DNA of 64,000 nucleotides from Lysobacteraceae bacterium (GTDB lineage: Bacteria > Pseudomonadota > Gammaproteobacteria > Xanthomonadales > Xanthomonadaceae), in contig JAEUPQ010000014.1 of assembly GCA_016789405.1 (NCBI GenBank), positions 186,001 to 250,000 of the forward strand. The letters are read 5' to 3'. The notes below the pieces were generated by a model. The model had not been told where the DNA came from. It ran no database searches and was given only the letters and a program-made list of their open reading frames with translations. Below, one piece after another: positions 38,824 through 48,382 of this stretch (position 1 is its first letter; each line of letters begins with the position of its first letter). The translations under genes were made by a program, and so were the position numbers.

Positions 38824-39555
38824 TCAACCGTGCCCGGACGCTGCATGCAGCACATCGAGCACCGCATCCGGATCGCAGCCGTAGATGCCCGCGCCCCAGG
38901 CCGCGTTCTGCTCGACTGCCGCCCAGCCCCGGCCTTCGATCAGGCCGACATCCACCACCGTCGCGACGGGCAGGTCGACGCGGGCATCGTCCAGCAGCGT
39001 ATCGACGAACGCATGGACCTCGGCCAATTCTTCGGCCGTGCTGGAGAAACCGTTGTCCTTCTGCAGTTCGCCGTCGCGCGAATAGATCGAGCAGGCGATG
39101 CGCTTGCGATCACGGATGAAGCAGCGGAACTCGCAGCGCCAGCGGACGATGTCGGAGACCAGCACCGGCATGTTTTCGTCGTAGCACTCCGGCAACGCAT
39201 CGGGTGCATAGACCTGAGCGGGAAACGTCTTGTCGTTCGGTGGTTTGATGAAGGTCGGCGCGGACAGCCTGCGCGCTTCGGACAGCGACATCAGCCGGAT
39301 CTCGCGCTTGCGATAGGGCTCGGGCAGACGCACCAGCCAGTCGTCCGGCGGCGACGCCAGCGCGATGCCCAGTTGTTCCGCCAGCGTCGGCCCGAACAGG
39401 GCTTCGGCGTACAGCACGGGCTCGTGCGCTTGCTGCAGATGCTCCGGTATGTGCCATCGGCTCAGCCGCTCGATCGACCAGCCGCGCGCAGCGGCAGCCT
39501 TCCACAGCGCCTGCGTGTCGTCGGAATAGCGTGGGGTCAGGATCAATGTGGGCAT
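38824..39555 (-). CDS. Divergent ATP-grasp (DUF4343/R2K-like) protein 1
   Basis: A 243-residue soluble protein. N-terminal part MPTLILTPRYSDDTQALWKA is a Rossmann-like pre-ATP-grasp domain; FIKPPNDKTF, RWRCEFRCFIRDRK and VVDVGLIEGRGWAAVEQNAAWG (Glu-x-Asn metal/ATP residues) are ATP-grasp features. It aligns by eye with the protein at 40199-40972 (FLRPIDDSKYF, AEYRYWVVGGE, VIDVCDTPDGPRIVEINTIN). Such divergent ATP-grasp enzymes are predicted protein/peptide ligases. The stop lies 5 bp before the regB ATG. Confidence 0.75.
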   Translation of the reverse strand: MPTLILTPRYSDDTQALWKAAAARGWSIERLSRWHIPEHLQQAHEPVLYAEALFGPTLAEQLGIALASPPDDWLVRLPEPYRKREIRLMSLSEARRLSAPTFIKPPNDKTFPAQVYAPDALPECYDENMPVLVSDIVRWRCEFRCFIRDRKRIACSIYSRDGELQKDNGFSSTAEELAEVHAFVDTLLDDARVDLPVATVVDVGLIEGRGWAAVEQNAAWGAGIYGCDPDAVLDVLHAASGHG

Positions 39556-39668
39556 GGAAAGAGGTCGAGACGTGATGGAAAGATTGCCTGCCAGGCGATC
39601 GCAGTGACGCATGGACAAGCATGGATGGATTGACGCATGACCTGCCCGCTTTCGCGGACGAAGCCTGT

Positions 39669-40109
39669 TCAGCGGCGATCGGGCAACAGGGACAGGTACT
39701 TTTTGTCTTCGTCGGCGAAGCCGAATGTTCCGCCGATGTCCCATGCGCGCTGAAACGCGGCGCGCGCGTTCTCGATATCGCCCTGTTCGTACATGAGGAT
39801 TCCCTTCTGTACCCAAAAGACCGGAATTTCATTCGATCGAGGTGTGGTCGAGATCAGGTGATCGGCAAACGCGATGCCATCCTCGAAATCCTTCGCGGCG
39901 ATGAAAGTCTTCAGCAATGGCATCGCCGTGATGTACGCATAACTGCAATGAAGTTTTGGCTCGGGCAGGATATCCCATGCCTTTCTGGCCATCTTCAATG
40001 CGCCGAGGGCGTCACCCTGTTCTCTCATGCGATCCATTTCATCGAGCGCTTCGCCCCAGGCAAGCTCTGCACTGGGCGAAAGATCGTGGGTAGCGTGGGT
40101 GCTTCCCAT
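39669..40109 (-). CDS. TPR-like protein between ATP-grasp genes
   Basis: A 146-residue soluble helical protein with TPR-like pairs (GDALGALKMARKAWDILPEP, KDFEDGIAFADHLIS, GDIENARAAFQRAWDIGG). No signal peptide. Codon usage is less G/C-extreme than in most neighbours, suggesting recent arrival. It sits between two paralogous ATP-grasp genes downstream of rtcR and may supply substrate recognition. Confidence 0.65.
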   Translation of the reverse strand: MGSTHATHDLSPSAELAWGEALDEMDRMREQGDALGALKMARKAWDILPEPKLHCSYAYITAMPLLKTFIAAKDFEDGIAFADHLISTTPRSNEIPVFWVQKGILMYEQGDIENARAAFQRAWDIGGTFGFADEDKKYLSLLPDRR

Positions 40110-40198: not shown

Positions 40199-40972
40199 TC
40201 ATGCCTCCAGTTCCTCCAGCGCCGCCACCAGCCTCTGGACGTCACCCGCGTAGAAACCGGCCGAGTTGATCGTGTTGATTTCCACGATGCGGGGCCCATC
40301 CGGGGTATCGCACACGTCGATCACGAACGCGCTATGCGGCTGCCAGTCCGTAACGGCCTGCATGACGAAGGCATCCAGTCGATCGTCGACGTCGGAGCTG
40401 TACACGACACGCCGACCAAGCTTGTACAGCGATTTCGTGGCGATCTCCCCGCCGACGACCCAGTAACGGTATTCGGCATGGATGGTCTTGGGCAGGCACA
40501 GCTGGACCCGGGTCGTCGGGGACAGGCTGGTGCCGTAGTCCTCGTCCAGATCGCAGACCTGTTTCCGCCAGGCCTCGAACTCGTCCACGTCGAAGACGCG
40601 CCCGGCGAAATACTTCGAGTCGTCGATCGGGCGGAGAAAGGTCGGTCCTTCCAGTCGCACGTCCTGGAAGGCCAGCACACGTGAATCGGCATTGAGCATG
40701 CGATCGCCCCATGCCGCTTTCTGCGCGATGAAATCCTGATCGAAGAGGTCGTAGACGCCCGGCGTCCAGCCGAAAGCCTTCGCCGAATGGCGCATGGAAT
40801 AGGAGCCGAAGCACACGGCCTTGTCGGCGCGCAGTACGGGCACAGGTTCCAGTTCGCCCACGAACGGAATGACCTTGTGGACGCTGTAAGGCAGGTCGAA
40901 CCGTTCGAGGGCCGCCACCAGGCTGTCCCACTCGGTTTCCTTGAACAGGTTGGTTTGCAGGATCCAGTGCAT
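40199..40972 (-). CDS. Divergent ATP-grasp (DUF4343/R2K-like) protein 2
   Basis: A 257-residue protein starting MHWILQTNLFKETEWDSL. The ATP-grasp core shows GPTFLRPIDDSKYFAG, CLPKTIHAEYRYWVV and FVIDVCDTPDGPRIVEINTIN, with the E-I-N metal-binding triplet near residue 232. It lies 27 bp downstream of rtcR on the same strand, so it is probably co-transcribed with it. Function is not established; relatives are predicted to ligate amino acids or peptides onto proteins. Confidence 0.75.
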   Translation of the reverse strand: MHWILQTNLFKETEWDSLVAALERFDLPYSVHKVIPFVGELEPVPVLRADKAVCFGSYSMRHSAKAFGWTPGVYDLFDQDFIAQKAAWGDRMLNADSRVLAFQDVRLEGPTFLRPIDDSKYFAGRVFDVDEFEAWRKQVCDLDEDYGTSLSPTTRVQLCLPKTIHAEYRYWVVGGEIATKSLYKLGRRVVYSSDVDDRLDAFVMQAVTDWQPHSAFVIDVCDTPDGPRIVEINTINSAGFYAGDVQRLVAALEELEA

Positions 40973-40999: not shown

Positions 41000-42592
<1,593 letters not shown>

Positions 42593-42614
42593 GATCCAAT
42601 CCGATAAACATGTA

Positions 42615-42638
42615 TCCCGAAGTATATGAAAATCGGGA
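42615..42638. promoter_or_regulatory. Candidate RtcR operator
   Basis: Inverted repeat TCCCGA-N12-TCGGGA in an otherwise AT-rich stretch, 77 bp upstream of the sigma-54 site and just before the rtcR start. Position and symmetry suit an enhancer site for RtcR; the actual RtcR recognition sequence here is unknown. Confidence 0.5.
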
Positions 42639-42715
42639 CGGCACCGATCGTCGCGGCGAGCAAGAAACGATCAATGTCCTTTTCAATCAATGAGATGAGT
42701 GCGACTGGAGAAAGT

Positions 42716-42731
42716 TGGCACGGGGATTGCC
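42716..42731 (+). promoter_or_regulatory. Sigma-54 promoter of the rsr-Y RNA-rtcBA operon
   Basis: TGGCACGGGGATTGCC matches the sigma-54 consensus TGGCAC-N5-TTGC with no mismatch, GG and GC being 10 bp apart. Transcription should start about 42742, leaving a leader of about 40 nt before rsr. Confidence 0.9.
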
Positions 42732-42783
42732 TTATGGAGCGCAAACGAAACGCAGATCGGGCATTCCCGAAAAGGACGACACC

Positions 42784-44334
42784 ATGGCCAACACTTCGCT
42801 CTTCACCTCCAGCCGCGGCATCCTGGTGCCGGCCGCCACCACCCGCAACGAAGCGGGCGGCCTGGCCTACGCCCGCAGCCCGAAGTCGGCGCTGGCGCTG
42901 TACGCGGCGACCGGCTGCCTCAATGGCACCTTCTATGCCGATGCCGGCGAGCAGCTGGACATGGCGCTGAAGCTCTGCGCGGAGGTCGAGCCGGACTTCG
43001 TGGCACGCACCGCGATCTACGCCCGCAAGGTCGGCCACATGAAGGACATGCCGGCGCTGCTGCTCGCCACCCTGTCGGTCCGCGACCGCGAGGCCTTCGC
43101 CGCCGCGTTCCCGCAGGTGGTCGACAACGGCCGCATGCTGCGCAACGTGGTGCAGATCCTGCGCAGCGGTCGCGTCGGCCGGAAGTCGTTGGGTTCGCTG
43201 CCCAAGCGCCTGATCCGCGACTGGCTGCAGAACGCGAACGTCGACCAGATCATCTCGGCCGCCATCGGCAACGACCCGTCGCTCGGCGACATCGTGAAGA
43301 TGGTGCACCCGAAGCCGGTCGATGCCGAGCGCCAGGCACTTTACGCATGGCTGATCGGCAAGCCGTTCGACATCGCGAAGCTGCCGGAGAAGGTGCGCGC
43401 CTACGAGGCGTTCAAGCGCGACCCGTCGCGCACGCTGCCGGACCTGCCGTTCCAGTACTACACGTCGCAGCCGCTGACGCAGTCGCACTGGAAGGCGCTG
43501 GCGACCCGTGCGTCCTGGCAGTCGCTGCGCCAGAACCTCAATCACTTCGCGCGCCACGGCGTCTTCACCGATGCCTACGTGCTGCGCAAGGTGGTGGCGA
43601 AACTGGCCGACGAAGCGTCGATCCGCAAGGCGCGCGTGATGCCGTACCAGCTGCTGACCACGTTCCAGGCGACCGCCGATCTGCCGCGCCAGATCGGCGA
43701 GGCCCTGCAGGACGCGATGGAAGTCGCGACCCGCCAGGTGCCGAAGCTCGAAGGCGACGTGGTGGTGGCGGTGGACGTGTCAGGCTCGATGAGCTCGGCG
43801 GTCACCGGCTATCGCAAGGGCGCGACCAGCGTGACGCGCTGCGTCGATGTCGCGGCGCTGATCGCGGCCTGCGTGCAGCGCACCAACCCGATGGCCCGCG
43901 TGATGCCGTTCGACACCGCCGTGCGCGACCTGCGCCTGAACCCGCGCGACAGCGTGATCACCCAGGCGCAGCAGCTGGCAAAGCTGTGCGGCGGTGGCAC
44001 CACGGTGAGCGCGCCGCTGGCGAAGCTCAACGCGGAAAACGCGAAGGTCGACCTGCTGGTGCTGATCTCGGACAACGAGAGCTGGCGCGACACGCGCGGC
44101 TCGGGCGCGACCGAGACCATGCGCCAGTGGGCGCAGATCAAGGCGCGCTGCCCGAACGCGAAGATGGTCTGCATCGACATCCAGCCGTACCACACCAGCC
44201 AGACGGTGGAGCGTGAGGACGTGCTGCATGTCGGCGGCTTCAGCGACGCGGTGTTCGACCTGCTCGCCAGCTTCGCCGCCGAGGGCATCGGCGCGCGTCG
44301 CTGGGTCGACCGGATCGCGAGCATTCCGTTGTAA
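42784..44334 (+). CDS. rsr: Rsr, Ro60/TROVE-domain RNA-binding protein
   Basis: A 516-residue Ro60 orthologue. Residues about 1-320 form the TROVE HEAT-repeat ring that binds Y RNA and misfolded RNA ends; residues about 325-516 form a von Willebrand A domain with an intact MIDAS: DVSGSMS (Asp331), GGGTTVSAPL and ISDNESW. AAGGA lies 9 bp before the ATG at 42784; an upstream in-frame ATG at 42715 overlaps the promoter and is rejected. Bacterial Rsr works with Y RNA and PNPase in RNA degradation and rRNA maturation. Confidence 0.95.
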   Translation: MANTSLFTSSRGILVPAATTRNEAGGLAYARSPKSALALYAATGCLNGTFYADAGEQLDMALKLCAEVEPDFVARTAIYARKVGHMKDMPALLLATLSVRDREAFAAAFPQVVDNGRMLRNVVQILRSGRVGRKSLGSLPKRLIRDWLQNANVDQIISAAIGNDPSLGDIVKMVHPKPVDAERQALYAWLIGKPFDIAKLPEKVRAYEAFKRDPSRTLPDLPFQYYTSQPLTQSHWKALATRASWQSLRQNLNHFARHGVFTDAYVLRKVVAKLADEASIRKARVMPYQLLTTFQATADLPRQIGEALQDAMEVATRQVPKLEGDVVVAVDVSGSMSSAVTGYRKGATSVTRCVDVAALIAACVQRTNPMARVMPFDTAVRDLRLNPRDSVITQAQQLAKLCGGGTTVSAPLAKLNAENAKVDLLVLISDNESWRDTRGSGATETMRQWAQIKARCPNAKMVCIDIQPYHTSQTVEREDVLHVGGFSDAVFDLLASFAAEGIGARRWVDRIASIPL

Positions 44335-44392
44335 AGAGGCAAAAAGAAGTCCCGGCCGGCGATGGGGCCTGCCGGGCGAAGAATTCAAGCGT

Positions 44393-44460
44393 TGACGGCG
44401 ATCGCGAATGCCATCGGGACTACACTCCAATGCGTCCCATACCCCTTGTCGCGATCGTCA
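44393..44460 (+). ncRNA. Y RNA 0: minimal form without tRNA-like module
   Basis: Outer helix CGATCGCGA (44399-44407) / TCGCGATCG (44449-44457), extended by TGA/TCA. Within it lie the bacterial Y-RNA motif halves CGAATG and CCTTGTC. The inner helix is GGGAC (44416-44420) / GTCCC (44434-44438), and the conserved TACA follows its 5' strand. The inner loop is only 13 nt, with no T or D arm. It lies 56 bp after the rsr stop codon. Confidence 0.75.
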
Positions 44461-44468
44461 TGCTCCCC

Positions 44469-44650
44469 ACCGTCGACGATGGAGAATGCAGGAAAAACTA
44501 CACCTTATGACGGTCCAGGTCGTGGGTTCGAGTCCCACCTGCCGCGCCAACATCATGGCTGCCGATCCACGATCGGCAGTCCTATGCGGCAGTAGCTCAG
44601 TCGGATAGAGCAGGCACGTTTTTCCGATCCTTGTCTCCGTTGTCGTCGGT
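44469..44650 (+). ncRNA. Y RNA 1 with permuted tRNA-like module and extra hairpin
   Basis: Outer helix of 17 pairs, 44469-44485 with 44634-44650 (one mismatch, two G-U). Inner helix GGAAAAAC (44491) / GTTTTTCC (44618), exact. Then TACA, a T arm GTGGG-TTCGAGT-CCCAC (44522-44538), acceptor 3' strand CTGCCGC (44539), a loop, acceptor 5' strand GCGGCAG (44586) and a D arm GCTC...GAGC. The acceptor pairs perfectly but in permuted order. The acceptor loop carries a further 9-bp hairpin CTGCCGATC / GATCGGCAG (44559-44579). Confidence 0.85.
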
Positions 44651-44701
44651 CTTTCATCCGTCATCCCGAGCGCAGCAAGGGGTGACGACAACCAGGTTTC
44701 A

Positions 44702-44842
44702 CCTCGTCGGTCGCGAATGCCGACGGAACTACACACTCTTAATGTCCGGGTCGCGGGTTCGAATCCCGCTCGTCGCAGGTGATCGCGACGGTAGCTCAGC
44801 GGTAGAGCAGGTGTTCCGTCATTCTTGTCGCGCTCGATGATG
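44702..44842 (+). ncRNA. Y RNA 2 with permuted tRNA-like module
   Basis: Outer helix 44702-44716 with 44828-44842 (13 of 15 pair). Inner helix GACGGAAC (44722) / GTTCCGTC (44813), exact. TACA; T arm GCGGG-TTCGAAT-CCCGC (44753-44769); acceptor TCGTCGC (44770) with GCGACGG (44785) across an 8-nt loop; D arm GCTCAGCGGTAGAGC. Motifs CGAATG and TCTTGTCG flank the module. The spacer after Y RNA 1 contains a GTCATCCC/GGGGTGAC hairpin. Confidence 0.87.
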
Positions 44843-44864
44843 CTTCGGTTCAATTGCTTCAACG

Positions 44865-45004
44865 TCGTCTCCATCGAATGCAGGTGGAACTACAGGGGTG
44901 CAGAGATCGCAGGTTCGAATCCTGCCCGTTGCCGGCCTGGGGCGGTAGCCGAGCGGTTCAAGGCGCTGCATGAAACGTTCCATCACCCTTTGTCGAAGAG
45001 ACGA
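44865..45004 (+). ncRNA. Y RNA 3 with Leu/Ser-like D arm
   Basis: Outer helix TCGTCTC (44865) / GAGACGA (44998) plus TCGA/TCGA. Inner helix GGTGGAAC (44883) / GTTCCATC (44977), one G-U. TACA; T arm GCAGG-TTCGAAT-CCTGC (44909-44925); acceptor CCGTTGCC with GGGGCGG (44939), one bulge and two G-U. The D arm TAGCCGAGCGGTTCAAGGC is of the long type seen in Leu/Ser tRNAs. CTTTGTCG marks the 3' Ro motif. Confidence 0.82.
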
Positions 45005-45026
45005 TTCCATTGCTTCACGTTCAACT

Positions 45027-45161
45027 ACGTCGGCCGCGAATGCCGATGGCGCTCCTTTTTGTCACGGGTTCGAATCCCGTCCGGTGTCCGTCAGTACGCC
45101 GGTAGCTCAGCCTGGTAGAGCAGAAGCAATGCGCGCCATCCCGTCTTGTCGCAGACGACGA
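45027..45161 (+). ncRNA. Y RNA 4 with permuted tRNA-like module
   Basis: Outer helix CGTCG (45028) / CGACG (45156) and GCGA/TCGC. Inner helix GATGGCGC (45045) / GCGCCATC (45133), exact although its sequence differs from the other copies: a compensatory change. T arm ACGGG-TTCGAAT-CCCGT (45064-45080); acceptor CCGGTGT (45081) / ACGCCGG (45096), one G-U, across an 8-nt loop; D arm GCTCAGCCTGGTAGAGC. TACA is replaced by TCCT. Confidence 0.85.
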
Positions 45162-45172
45162 TCAACGGTTCC

Positions 45173-45298
45173 AGCGGCGAATGCTGGCGGAAGTACACGG
45201 GTAAGCGCGGCTCGTCCGCGCGACCGGGTTCGAGCCCCGGGCACAAGGTCATCCGGCCCTGTGGCGTCACAACACCTTCCGTTCCACTTGTCGCCGTT
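45173..45298 (+). ncRNA. Y RNA 5, tRNA-like module lacking a D arm
   Basis: Outer helix AGCGGCGA (45173) / TCGCCGTT (45291). Inner helix GGCGGAAG (45186) / CTTCCGTT (45276), two G-U. TACA present; T arm CCGGG-TTCGAGC-CCCGG (45224-45240). The acceptor GCACAAGG / CCTGTGGC needs two bulges, and no GCTCAG-type D arm follows. CGAATG and CACTTGTCG motifs are intact, so Ro binding should be retained. Confidence 0.72.
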
Positions 45299-45342
45299 TC
45301 CTTTCAATGACGGTCCCAAATCGCTTTACGAAATGCTTGGCC

Positions 45343-45804
45343 ATGAAGACATCTCGCTGCGACAAAAGATTACGATGCCACGACTGGACTCAATCGGGAA
45401 TTGTCGCGCTGTGGCATTACGAAGAGCCGAATCGGAATTACCTCGGCTGGCATCTCAATGCCGATGGGCGCGGATGCACGTCGCTTTGCGAACTCATCGA
45501 TGCGATGGTCGCAGACGGTGCCGGCGCAACGCGCCGGATCACGATCACTGCACCGTCGCGAGCCATGCTGGCTGTTCCGAATTGCCGGCAAGGCAAGCCG
45601 ATTTCGCCGCAGACATTGCGTCTGTCTGTGCACAGGAGCAAGAACGAATGGCGCTTCTCGTCCGATGCGATCTCCGCAGAGATCAGGCTCGGCGAAACAT
45701 GGCTGCATCGTCTGCGCCAAGGGATCGTTTCCATTCATCAAGGCAATGGCGACTACTCGATCGGAGCCGGCAGCAAAGATCAACAATTGTGGTTCTGGTG
45801 GTAA
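45343..45804 (+). CDS. Hypothetical protein embedded in the Y RNA array
   Basis: A 153-residue soluble ORF (a longer start at 45307 adds 12 residues). It has a plausible amino-acid mix, a Cys/His-containing N-terminus (SRCDKRLRCHDW), an HYEEPNRNYLGWHLNADGRG segment and an aromatic end (QQLWFWW). Codons use far more A/T at third positions than neighbouring genes (CAA, AAA, ACA, GGA are common), suggesting acquisition from elsewhere. No signal peptide, TM segment or recognised family. Located between Y RNA 5 and Y RNA 6. Confidence 0.55.
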   Translation: MKTSRCDKRLRCHDWTQSGIVALWHYEEPNRNYLGWHLNADGRGCTSLCELIDAMVADGAGATRRITITAPSRAMLAVPNCRQGKPISPQTLRLSVHRSKNEWRFSSDAISAEIRLGETWLHRLRQGIVSIHQGNGDYSIGAGSKDQQLWFWW

Positions 45805-45828
45805 GGCTGCCGGAACCCCGAACTTTCA

Positions 45829-45943
45829 TGCGGCAAATGCCTGTGGAACTACATGGTTCCCCTCACGGGTTGGGTTCAAGTCCCACTGCACGAATGGCCG
45901 ATGCCCTTCGGCGTAGAGAATTCCACACTTTTTTGTCGCCGCA
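45829..45943 (+). ncRNA. Y RNA 6, next to rtcB, with reduced tRNA-like module
   Basis: Outer helix TGCGGC (45829) / GCCGCA (45938). Inner helix TGTGGAA (45842) / TTCCACA (45921), exact. The GGAACTACA signature is present. A T arm around TTCAAGT (TGGG/CCCA) is present, but acceptor and D arms are replaced by a GCCGA-TGCCC-TTCGGC-like hairpin followed by GTAGAG. The 5' motif reads AAATGCC and the 3' motif TTTTTTGTCG. It ends 29 bp before the rtcB start. Confidence 0.72.
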
Positions 45944-45972
45944 CCTTCAACAGTAATGCGAGAATTCGAGCT

Positions 45973-47199
45973 ATGAACACCGAACACTACAACGTCATCC
46001 AGGACCCGGGCGCGGTGCCGATCAAGCTGTGGACGCGCGGCGTCCCGCTCGAGGACGAGGCCCGCGACCAGCTGCGCAACATCGCGAAGCTGCCCTTCAT
46101 CCATCGCTGGATCGCGGTGATGCCCGACGTGCACCTGGGCAAGGGCGCGACCGTGGGTTCGGTGGTGCCGACCATCGGCGCGATCATCCCGGCGGCGGTC
46201 GGCGTGGATATCGGCTGCGGCATGATCGCGGCGCGCACCTCGCTGGTCGCGAGTGATCTGCCCGACAACCTCGCCGAACTGCGCAGTACGATCGAGTCCG
46301 CAGTGCCGCATGGTCGCAGCCCGCCGCGTGGCGGCCGCGACAAGGGTGCCTGGGAAAACGCGCCGCAGCTCTCGGTCGAGGGTTGGTCGCAGCTCGTGGC
46401 GGATTTCGAGAAGATCTGCGAGCGCCACCCGCGCCTGAAGAACACCAACAACCTCAAGCACCTCGGTACGCTCGGCACGGGCAACCACTTCATCGAGATC
46501 TGTCTGGATGAAGAGCAGCGCGTGTGGTTCATGCTGCACTCCGGTTCGCGCGGTGTCGGCAACGCCATCGGTACCTACTTCATCGAGCTGGCGAAGCAGG
46601 AAATGCGCCGCTGGATGATCAACCTGCCGGACCAGGACCTGGCTTACCTGCCGGAAGGCAGCGAGCACTACGCCGATTACGTGTTCGCGGTGGACTGGGC
46701 GCAGCGATACGCGCGCATGAATCGCGAGATCATGATGCGCCACGTGGTCGAAGCGGTGCGCAAGGTGATCCCGAAGCCGTTCGAGGCCCAGGCCGAGGCG
46801 GTGAACTGCCACCACAACTACGTGCAGATGGAGCACCACTTCGGCAAGAACGTGCACGTGACGCGCAAGGGCGCGGTGAGCGCGCGCAAGGGCGAGCTGG
46901 GGATCATCCCGGGCAGCATGGGCGCGAAGAGCTTCATCGTGCGCGGCCTCGGCAACGAGGACAGCTTCTGCAGCTGCAGCCACGGCGCCGGCCGCGTGAT
47001 GAGCCGCACTGCTGCGAAGAAACTGATCTCGCTCGATGACCACATCAAGGCCACCGCACACGTGGAATGCCGAAAGGACGCCGACGTGGTCGACGAATCG
47101 CCGGCGGCCTACAAGCCGATCGATGCGGTGATGGCGGCCCAGGAAGACCTCGTCGAGATCGTGCATACCCTGCGGCAGGTGGTGTGCGTCAAGGGGTGA
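45973..47199 (+). CDS. rtcB: RtcB, 3'-phosphate RNA ligase
   Basis: A 408-residue RNA ligase joining 2',3'-cyclic phosphate or 3'-phosphate ends to 5'-OH ends using GTP and Mn2+. Metal and catalytic segments are present: MPDVHLGKGATVG, VGVDIGCGM (Cys near 79), GTLGTGNHFIE, HSGSRGVG, and CSCSHGAGR, where His337 is the guanylylated histidine, the same number as in E. coli RtcB. The ATG at 45973 fits the family's MNTEHYNVI start. Confidence 0.97.
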   Translation: MNTEHYNVIQDPGAVPIKLWTRGVPLEDEARDQLRNIAKLPFIHRWIAVMPDVHLGKGATVGSVVPTIGAIIPAAVGVDIGCGMIAARTSLVASDLPDNLAELRSTIESAVPHGRSPPRGGRDKGAWENAPQLSVEGWSQLVADFEKICERHPRLKNTNNLKHLGTLGTGNHFIEICLDEEQRVWFMLHSGSRGVGNAIGTYFIELAKQEMRRWMINLPDQDLAYLPEGSEHYADYVFAVDWAQRYARMNREIMMRHVVEAVRKVIPKPFEAQAEAVNCHHNYVQMEHHFGKNVHVTRKGAVSARKGELGIIPGSMGAKSFIVRGLGNEDSFCSCSHGAGRVMSRTAAKKLISLDDHIKATAHVECRKDADVVDESPAAYKPIDAVMAAQEDLVEIVHTLRQVVCVKG

Positions 47200-47359: not shown

Positions 47360-48382
47360 ATGACCGAGATGATCGAAATCGACGGCTCCGCCGGCGGCGG
47401 GCAGCTGCTCCGCACGGCCTTGAGCCTGAGCCTGTGCACCGGCACGGGCTTCACCATGACCCGCATCCGTGCCAAGCGTTCGAAGCCGGGCCTGATGCGC
47501 CAGCACCTGACCGCGGTGAATGCCGCGGCGAAGATCGGCAATGCCTTCGTCGAAGGCGCGGAGCTGGGCGCGACCACTTTGCGCTTCACGCCCGGCGTGG
47601 TCTCTGCGGGCGACTACCGCTTCGCGACCGGCAGCGCCGGCTCGGCGATGCTGGTGTTGCAGACCATCCTGCCGCCGCTCTCGCAATGCGATCGTCCGTC
47701 GACGCTGCGGCTCGAAGGCGGCACGCACAATCCCATGGCGCCGAGCGCGGACTTCCTGATCGACACCTTCCTGCCGGCGGCGGCGAAGATCGGCATCGAG
47801 GCGAGCCTGCGCATCGAGCGCCCGGGCTTCTTCCCGGCCGGCGGCGGCATCGCGCATGCGACCGTGCTGCCGGCGACGGGGCTGCGCCAGGTCGAACTCC
47901 TCGATCGCGGCTCGAAGTTGGGCATGTCGGCGACCGCCATGCTTTCCGCGCTTGCAACGAACATCGGCGAGCGCGAGCTGGATGTGCTGATGCGTCGCCT
48001 GCACCTGCCGCGAGACGCGATGCGCGTGCACGAGGTGCGCCCGCCGGTCGGCCCGGGCAACGTGCTGCTGCTGCGCGTCGAGCACGAATCACACGCCGAA
48101 GTGTTCACCGGCCACGGCGAGCGCGGCATCACCGCCGAGCGTGTCGCGGAACGGCTGAGCGAGGAGGCGGGTCACTACCTGCGCAGCAGCGCCTGCGTTG
48201 GCGAGCACCTGTCCGATCAGCTCCTGCTGCCGATGGCGTTGGCCGGGGGTGGTTCGTTCACCACGCACCTCGTCAGCGACCACCTGAGCAGCAACGCACG
48301 GCTGATCGAGAAGTTCCTGCCGGTCGAAATCGACTGGACCGAGGAAGCACCGCAGCGCTGGCGTGTACGGGTCGCCTCCTGA
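47360..48382 (+). CDS. rtcA: RtcA, RNA 3'-terminal phosphate cyclase
   Basis: A 340-residue cyclase that converts RNA 3'-phosphate into 2',3'-cyclic phosphate with ATP. Signatures: MIEIDGSAGGGQLLRTALSL, RAKRSKPGLMRQHLTAV, FFPAGGG and the catalytic-histidine region GGGSFTTHLVSDH with His303. The last gene of the rsr-rtcBA direction; the next gene is convergent. Confidence 0.96.
   Translation: MTEMIEIDGSAGGGQLLRTALSLSLCTGTGFTMTRIRAKRSKPGLMRQHLTAVNAAAKIGNAFVEGAELGATTLRFTPGVVSAGDYRFATGSAGSAMLVLQTILPPLSQCDRPSTLRLEGGTHNPMAPSADFLIDTFLPAAAKIGIEASLRIERPGFFPAGGGIAHATVLPATGLRQVELLDRGSKLGMSATAMLSALATNIGERELDVLMRRLHLPRDAMRVHEVRPPVGPGNVLLLRVEHESHAEVFTGHGERGITAERVAERLSEEAGHYLRSSACVGEHLSDQLLLPMALAGGGSFTTHLVSDHLSSNARLIEKFLPVEIDWTEEAPQRWRVRVAS

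What the first reader, a model, noticed from the sequence alone, without database searches (positions are those of the whole stretch)
44393..45943. Tandem array of about seven Y RNAs between rsr and rtcB
Seven elements share a 5' CGAATG-type and a 3' CNTTGTC-type Ro motif. Each has an outer helix and an 8-bp (5 or 7 bp in two copies) inner helix that is exact or G-U paired in every copy although its sequence changes (for example GACGGAAC/GTTCCGTC, GGAAAAAC/GTTTTTCC, GATGGCGC/GCGCCATC). That is covariation. TACA follows the inner helix in six of seven. Salmonella has two such RNAs at rsr-yrl-rtcBA; a set of seven under one sigma-54 promoter looks like a diversified Y RNA repertoire, perhaps giving Rsr several client or partner specificities.
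Basis: partly seen in the sequence, partly recalled or inferred. Interest (0 to 1): 0.93.

Follow-up and report, generated by a model that had tools for sequence, protein, structure and literature searches.

The report
Y RNAs built as rearranged tRNAs
Between two RNA-repair genes this bacterium carries seven small RNA elements with the Ro-protein binding motif; six contain at least part of a tRNA, and two of those are predicted to fold as whole tRNAs in rearranged order, with an anticodon arm whose loop is among the fastest-changing parts of the RNA, so they are likely tRNA look-alikes that the Ro protein would hold out as bait or docking sites during tRNA damage.

Summary
Confirmed and extended. 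Seven Ro-motif elements lie between rsr and rtcB (44402-45941), none elsewhere in the window; shuffles give 0.006. Rfam YrlA finds five (E <= 0.0011, one above its cut-off), a model built here six. In two (44480-44639, 44711-44833) the module includes an anticodon arm (4 of 5 stem pairs each), interrupted between tRNA positions 29 and 30 by the Ro-binding stem. Of 81 rsr loci, 58 have such an element. In 65 distinct arms, pairs 27-43 and 28-42 hold in 65 of 65 with changing letters, U33 in 54, a purine at 37 in 60, while position 34 splits 17/17/16/15. In 16 Comamonadaceae orthologues the two most variable of 117 columns are positions 34 and 36. Papers I could read mention only D, T and acceptor arms and a permuted fold for Salmonella YrlA; the primary Y RNA papers were not held, so novelty is provisional. 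Several Y RNAs per locus are common; seven ties for the most seen. Function is inferred: Rsr-bound tRNA look-alikes, likely bait or docking sites for enzymes acting on anticodon arms. No expression or binding data.

The parts
41000..42592 (-). rtcR, sigma-54 activator with the RtcR ligand-binding domain, divergent from the operon
   Evidence: Pfam RtcR E 1.1e-77, Sigma54_activat E 1.3e-47; relatives in 65 of 80 rsr loci
42716..42730 (+). sigma-54 promoter motif TGGCAC-N5-TTGC, the only match in the window
   Evidence: same motif upstream of rsr in 8 of 9 relatives looked at (not in L065)
42784..44334 (+). rsr, Ro60-type ring protein (TROVE and vWA)
   Evidence: Pfam vWA_Ro60 E 1.1e-17, TROVE E 6.4e-7; PDB 2nvo Rsr E 1.4e-27
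44402..44454 (+). Y element 1, minimal: Ro stem and 13-nt loop, no tRNA-like module
   Evidence: fold z -2.94; kept in L052 (50 of 53 identical), not found in L070; no Rfam or R1 match
44480..44639 (+). Y element 2: permuted tRNA with anticodon arm, 7-bp acceptor stem, G73, encoded CCA and 36-nt acceptor linker
   Evidence: YrlA 66.6 bits, R1 E 1.2e-29, fold z -4.30, CCA
44503..44516 (+). element 2 anticodon hairpin: 30-31 CC, loop UUAUGAC, 39-43 GGUCC (partner 27-29 at 44613-44615; pair 29-41 is C-U, not paired)
   Evidence: loop varies at 4 of 7 sites against 5 of 153 elsewhere in three orthologues
44539..44592 (+). element 2 acceptor part: CUGCCGC, G73, CCA, linker, GCGGCAG
44711..44833 (+). 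Y element 3: permuted tRNA with anticodon arm
   Evidence: YrlA 58.7 bits, R1 E 1.6e-30 (in the training set)
44734..44747 (+). element 3 anticodon hairpin: 30-31 CA, loop CUCUUAA (triplet CUU), 39-43 UGUCC (partner 27-29 at 44810-44812; pair 29-41 is U-U, not paired)
44872..44998 (+). Y element 4: permuted tRNA, 5-bp anticodon stem CUGCA/UGCAG with the Ro stem in place of the loop
   Evidence: YrlA 40.7 bits, R1 E 1.6e-17, stem letters printed; different module at this place in L052, missing in L070
45034..45154 (+). Y element 5: YrlA of the Rfam type (T, acceptor, D arms; no anticodon hairpin)
   Evidence: YrlA 72.2 bits, over cut-off; R1 E 2.6e-20
45175..45296 (+). Y element 6: divergent module with T arm and an extra hairpin before it, no clear D arm
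   Evidence: hairpin in the fold; R1 E 1.7e-8; YrlA only 17.6 bits
45307..45804 (+). 165-aa ORF of unknown family between elements 6 and 7
   Evidence: no Pfam match; 5 relatives at E <= 0.001 in the protein search; none in 80 rsr loci
45831..45941 (+). Y element 7: module with T arm and an extra hairpin before it, last before rtcB
   Evidence: YrlA 28.8 bits, R1 E 2.9e-10, fold
45973..47199 (+). rtcB RNA ligase
   Evidence: Pfam RtcB E 4e-131
47360..48382 (+). rtcA RNA cyclase
   Evidence: Pfam RTC E 6.4e-73

Best explanation
Six of the seven elements carry a T-arm-containing tRNA-like module, and in two of them that module is predicted to fold as a whole, circularly permuted tRNA whose anticodon stem is interrupted by the Ro-binding stem, so that the RNAs likely work as tRNA look-alikes held by the ring protein Rsr. 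Shown by sequence and covariation in homologues: the Ro stem, T arm, acceptor stem, D arm and, in the whole type, an anticodon stem with a 7-nt loop that mostly keeps U33 and a purine at 37 while the anticodon varies (4 of 5 stem pairs in each of the two window copies). Inferred: the array is transcribed with rsr and rtcBA when broken tRNAs activate RtcR; each RNA docks on Rsr through its stem; the tRNA face then engages proteins that recognise tRNAs, above all those that act on the anticodon arm (nucleases, PNPase, RtcB, modifying enzymes), as bait or docking platform. Because the triplets look like random ones (36 of 54 occur in the host set found, which covers 40 of 64 triplets) and most acceptor ends are closed by a short loop, decoding is unlikely.
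For: Seven elements, chance 0.006. Six fit model R1. Anticodon arm: 77 class-B elements chosen without using its pairing give 65 distinct arms; 27-43 pairs in 65/65, 28-42 in 65/65, 30-40 in 57/65, 31-39 in 58/65 (slid by 1 to 3 nt: 14-41, 5-30, 14-26, 25-34); 291 of 325 cells against 169 +/- 8 after re-dealing, maximum 198 in 1000. On 54 aligned RNAs the named structure pairs in 98.3% of cells against 78.1% shuffled and at most 46.1% slid; both anticodon helices change on both sides. U33 54/65, purine 37 60/65, N34 17/17/16/15. Variable triplet: 34 and 36 are the top two of 117 columns in 16 orthologues; in element 2 the loop varies at 4 of 7 sites against 5 of 153 elsewhere, p 1.6e-4. Further set: 9 new elements, 41 of 45 pairs. 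Operon setting and regulator; in Salmonella RtcR binds 5' tRNA halves cut in the anticodon loop (PMC7790460, passages).
Against: No expression, Rsr binding or cleavage data. In Salmonella YrlA fragments were not detected when anticodon loops were cut (PMC7790460); the Rfam YrlA consensus has no anticodon hairpin, which may explain this. Only two of seven copies here have the arm, each with pair 29-41 unpaired, and over 65 arms pair 29-41 (46/65) is hardly better than when slid (25-42). Copies 6 and 7 fit loosely and copy 1 has no module. U33 fails in 11 of 65 and in 4 of 9 of the further set, and in the L052 and L070 orthologues of element 2. RNAalifold and RNAfold do not predict the short anticodon helices. 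A variable triplet may mean no constraint rather than diversifying selection.
Confidence: 0.5

Rival explanations
1. Adaptors only: as in the Deinococcus RYPER machine, every copy just tethers Rsr to PNPase or another nuclease, the tRNA fold being the docking surface; the anticodon arm is a stabilising leftover and copy number raises dosage.
For: Known role of Y RNA as tether between Rsr and PNPase (reviewed in PMC8394870 and PMC8058203, passages); many copies lack the anticodon hairpin.
Against: The arm is kept with compensatory change in loci from Lysobacteraceae to Acidobacteria and Verrucomicrobia records, and the triplet changes faster than most of the RNA; a pure tether predicts neither.
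Confidence: 0.3
2. Permuted tRNA genes: RNase P and tRNA 3'-end maturation cut the acceptor linker and RtcB joins the other ends, giving functional tRNAs.
For: Element 2 has a 7-bp acceptor stem, G73 and CCA followed by a linker; RtcB is in the operon; element 2 is most like tRNA-Arg.
Against: Only 8 of 77 have CCA, 28 of 77 are capped by GNRA tetraloops; triplets match the host set no better than chance (36/54 vs 40/64) and A34 is frequent, 13/54 vs 1/41 in host tRNAs; ARAGORN finds no tRNA in the window.
Confidence: 0.05
3. Neutral turnover: duplicated Y RNAs accumulate and decay in a spacer also hit by repeats, and most copies have no function of their own.
For: Copies 1, 4, 6 and 7 are each lost, replaced or displaced in at least one of two relatives with 94 to 95% identical Rsr; copies 6 and 7 fit the model loosely; repeat-like inserts in L052 and L070.
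Against: Ro motifs and both helices are intact in all seven; elements 2, 3 and 5 stay 87 to 96% identical in both relatives.
Confidence: 0.15

Closest known systems
YrlA bacterial Y RNA (Rfam RF02553; Salmonella YrlA, PDB 6CU1)
   Same: Ro stem with GAAUGC and UUGUC motifs, T arm, acceptor stem and D arm in permuted order, next to rsr; one copy over the family cut-off, five at E <= 0.0011
   Different: Elements 2 and 3 have an anticodon hairpin that the Rfam model can only treat as a 13-nt insertion (alignments); element 4 has a 5-bp anticodon stem; element 1 has no module; several different modules stand in one array
rsr-yrlBA-rtcBA RNA repair operon of Salmonella
   Same: rtcR (divergent here), sigma-54 motif, rsr, Y RNAs, rtcB, rtcA
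   Different: Seven Y elements where the Salmonella operon name gives two, and an extra ORF inside the array
Permuted tRNA genes of algae and archaea (recalled, no call)
   Same: 3' half precedes 5' half, some with CCA and linker
   Different: Ends form a Ro-binding stem inside the anticodon stem; most acceptors are closed by a short loop; no sign of decoding

Membership tests
Bacterial Y RNA | Ro-binding stem with paired conserved motifs | tested here: met
   7 of 7 elements; covariation in 54 homologues
Bacterial Y RNA | Encoded next to an Rsr gene | tested here: met
   rsr 42784-44334
Bacterial Y RNA | Expressed and bound by Rsr | not testable with these tools
   no expression or binding data
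YrlA (RF02553) | Score at or above the family cut-off of 69 bits | tested here: inconclusive
   1 of 7 above it; 4 more at E <= 0.0011; element 6 at 17.6 bits; element 1 none
YrlA (RF02553) | tRNA-like module with T, acceptor and D arms in permuted order | tested here: inconclusive
   met in elements 2 to 5 (model alignments); T arm but no clear D arm in 6 and 7; none in 1
tRNA | Gene recognised by a tRNA finder in normal order | tested here: not met
   ARAGORN 0 in the window; the Rfam tRNA hit 44785-44933 joins halves of elements 3 and 4
tRNA | Anticodon suited to decoding, free CCA end | tested here: not met
   tested on the 77 homologous elements as a set: triplets at chance level, A34 common, CCA in 8 of 77; element 2 itself does encode CCA
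RtcR-controlled RNA repair operon | rtcR, sigma-54 site, rtcB and rtcA | tested here: met
RtcR-controlled RNA repair operon | Induction by broken tRNAs | not testable with these tools
   shown for Salmonella (PMC7790460, passages), not here

The most novel reading that the evidence does not exclude
The arrays are diversifying repertoires of whole-tRNA decoys: each Y RNA holds out an intact anticodon arm on the Rsr ring, its triplet changing fast under conflict with anticodon nucleases of toxins and phages, so that the RNA repair operon makes bait for the very enzymes whose damage switches it on, with RtcB able to mend the bait. A Y RNA beside rsr on a viral contig that carries the same arm with a UUU triplet (L135) would then be part of the same contest.
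Probability: 0.27. Interest if true: 0.92.

Novelty: new variant of a known kind. Interest (0 to 1): 0.78.

Why it matters
The role of bacterial Y RNAs in RNA repair operons is open: the paper that found the inducing signal says that it did not address Rsr and Y RNAs (PMC7790460, passages). An anticodon arm with a fixed frame and a free triplet gives that question a concrete handle: which protein reads the arm, and does the triplet set what it reads. It also links the induction signal, tRNAs cut in the anticodon loop, to a feature of the RNAs encoded in the same operon, and it supplies a model (R1) that, in this window, scores the two Y RNAs with the arm above those without.

Tried and rejected
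Copies derived from particular host tRNAs: only element 2 is somewhat close to tRNA-Arg (score 41; 5 of 42 host tRNAs score that high with another isotype, range 21 to 45), elements 3 and 5 (34, 33) are average, 4, 6 and 7 lower (30, 20, 23); rejected as a general claim. The host set is incomplete (assembly 94.45% complete). Different anticodons within a locus: all seven loci with two arms have two different triplets, but with the spread about half a coincidence is expected, so it proves nothing. Rfam tRNA hit at 44785-44933: chimera of two elements, rejected as a tRNA gene. YrlA hits elsewhere in the genome: all seven hits outside the array overlap tRNA genes listed; rejected as Y RNAs. R1 matches of 42 to 58 bits in the phylum search (60 of 398 genomes have a match at E <= 1e-8) were not used: some lie beside high-scoring matches and may be Y RNAs, others come in close-set groups as tRNA clusters would; apart from those inside loci L138 to L148 they were not inspected. 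Single-sequence folding was of little use. Elements opened in the D loop or with long variable arms were read by eye; tags 8 by a simple motif; not claimed further. Papers: Y RNA with permuted tRNA, 0 papers; anticodon nuclease with tRNA decoy, 0; the primary Y RNA papers (Chen 2014, Wang 2018, Sim and Wolin 2018) are not held, so prior description of the anticodon arm cannot be excluded.
Full report
What is there. The intergenic region between rsr (42784-44334) and rtcB (45973-47199) holds seven elements with paired Ro motifs, at 44402-44454, 44480-44639, 44711-44833, 44872-44998, 45034-45154, 45175-45296 and 45831-45941; the strict scanner finds none in the rest of the window, both strands. 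Shuffled sequence gives 0.006 on average (500 shuffles). The setting is an RNA repair operon: rtcR divergent, a sigma-54 motif at 42716-42730, rsr, the array, rtcB and rtcA, with no sigma-70-like promoter and no terminator-like site found in 42550-46100. A 165-aa ORF with five relatives found and no Pfam family lies between elements 6 and 7.

Y RNA identity. Rfam YrlA matches element 5 above its cut-off and elements 2, 3, 4 and 7 at E <= 0.0011; element 6 is weak and element 1 unmatched. The Rsr protein matches the solved structure 2nvo, Rsr, E 1.4e-27. A covariance model from 54 homologous elements finds six of the seven at E 1.6e-30 to 1.7e-8 and nothing else in the window below E 1.3; of the six only element 3 was in the training set.

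The new point: the anticodon arm. Eighty loci with an Rsr relative (the best 80 of 198) and the window gave 239 elements with the strict and relaxed scanners together, 166 with a T arm and 97 with T and D arms. The strict scanner alone gives 174, and 2 on the wrong strand of the 80 loci (1.26 Mb); both scanners together give 8 on the wrong strand, so a few of the 239 are chance. Of the 97, 77 have the T loop 23 to 32 nt after the inner helix; this choice does not use anticodon pairing. When tRNA numbering is laid on them from the T loop backwards and from the D stem forwards, positions 27-28 pair with 42-43 and 30-31 with 39-40, and the Ro stem sits between 29 and 30. In 65 distinct arms the counts are 65, 65, 46, 57 and 58 of 65 for pairs 27-43, 28-42, 29-41, 30-40 and 31-39. 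Sliding the partners by 1 to 3 nt gives 14-41, 5-30, 25-42, 14-26 and 25-34, so pair 29-41 is hardly supported and the other four are; re-dealing strands among elements gives 169 +/- 8 paired cells instead of 291 of 325. Pair 27-43 occurs as GC 32, CG 24, AU 6 and GU 3. Counted on the alignment of 54 of the 77 (length 112 to 137 nt, one per distinct arm), the whole structure, taken from the window's element 3 and without pair 29-41, pairs in 98.3% of cells (shuffled 78.1%, slid at most 46.1%), and both anticodon helices have changes on both sides; 10 of the 54 rows are gapped at the upper one. The loop keeps U33 in 54 of 65 and a purine at 37 in 60 of 65, whereas position 34 is C 17, U 17, A 16, G 15. 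58 of 81 loci have at least one element with at least four of the five pairs and U33. The window's elements 2 and 3 each have four of five, 29-41 being unpaired, with U33 and A37. Nine further class-B elements from genomes found with the model show 41 of 45 pairs, but U33 in only 5 of 9. On six viral contigs with an Rsr relative, three have Y-like elements, ten in all on the rsr strand, and one of the ten parses with the whole arm, triplet UUU.

The triplet is variable. In 16 orthologues of one element in Comamonadaceae loci, positions 34 and 36 are the two columns of highest entropy among 117, while 33 is invariant, 37 nearly so, and 31-39 changes in step. In the three orthologues of element 2 (window, L052, L070) the 7-nt loop varies at 4 sites and the other 153 positions at 5 (p 1.6e-4). 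The triplets of the 54 arms with U33 agree with the host's tRNA set no more than random triplets would (36 of 54 against 40 of 64) and include A34 in 13 of 54, against 1 of 41 host tRNAs (p 0.003). So the arm is kept and the triplet is free or driven; these data do not say which.

Other architecture. 28 of 77 acceptor stems are capped by GNRA tetraloops; 55 of 77 are closed by a loop of at most 8 nt, and 8 of 77, element 2 and two orthologues among them, encode CCA after position 73. Elements without the hairpin still pair 27-43 and 28-42 in 15 of 17 each (0 to 11 of 17 when slid). Element 4 shows a 5-bp anticodon stem that runs into the Ro stem (read). Within close relatives (Rsr 94 to 95% identical) elements 2, 3 and 5 are conserved (87 to 96%), element 1 is kept in L052 and not found in L070, element 4 is replaced in L052 and missing in L070, element 6 is kept in L070 and replaced in L052, and the ORF with element 7 is not at that place in either. 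A module of the type of element 7 stands last before rtcB in L052 and in L053, L058 and L061, as read.

How special is seven. Within 3.5 kb of rsr the counts are 0 in 7 loci, 1 in 8, 2 in 17, 3 in 21, 4 in 20, 5 in 4, 6 in 1 and 7 in 3, the window included (some contigs end early, the scanners miss divergent copies, and a few weak elements are probably chance). With Rfam YrlA at E <= 1e-5, 26 of 198 genomes of the family have a match and the window's genome ties with one other for the most, four. So the array is at the upper end of a common pattern.

Mechanism. What is shown is sequence, covariation and gene order. What is known from papers read in passages: RtcR is activated by 5' tRNA halves ending in cyclic phosphate after cleavage in the anticodon loop; the authors suggest that the YrlA tRNA-like domain may be a competitive inhibitor of the nuclease and report no YrlA fragments (PMC7790460); a review names D, T and acceptor arms as the mimicked parts and PNPase as effector (PMC8394870); the Salmonella structure superposes on tRNA with a circular permutation (PMC11472068). 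The most economical step from there is that Rsr holds these RNAs as tRNA look-alikes, and that the arm is read by a protein that acts on anticodon arms. Bait, docking and plain tether remain open; I rank bait or docking first because a kept frame with a changing triplet is what that predicts.

Limits. The primary Y RNA papers were not held, so the anticodon arm may already be described. The loci were chosen by similarity to this Rsr. Single-sequence folding does not show the short helices.

Noticed in passing
window 38824-39816 (-) and 40199-40972 (-): Two ATP-grasp genes of the R2K clade stand next to rtcR, with an ORF showing sub-threshold TPR matches (39669-40109) between; no relative at E <= 1e-10 in the held stretches of the 80 rsr loci.
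   Followed up: partly
window 45307-45804: A 165-aa ORF inside the array, no Pfam family, five relatives in the protein search, none in the 80 rsr loci.
   Followed up: partly
L054 2156-2227, L055 9609-9682, L065 9630-9694: Short Y elements at the head of other arrays carry a lone T arm in place of a full module.
   Followed up: no
L105 9838-9962, L111 4876-5002, L112 9842-9967, L130 10065-10190: Elements that read as tRNAs opened in the D loop, some with a long variable arm: other permutation points beside the one in the anticodon stem (by eye).
   Followed up: no
L137 5916-5982: A viral-contig Y-like element whose module reads as a bare anticodon-like hairpin UGA-CUUGUAA-UCA.
   Followed up: no
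L052 and L070, between elements 3 and 5: Long inverted repeat-like inserts (GTCATCCCGAGCGCAGCGAGG...) within the arrays; a shorter related stretch lies at about window 44660-44690.
   Followed up: no
window 44785-44933: An Rfam tRNA hit made of the 5' half in element 3 and the 3' half in element 4, a trap for annotation.
   Followed up: yes
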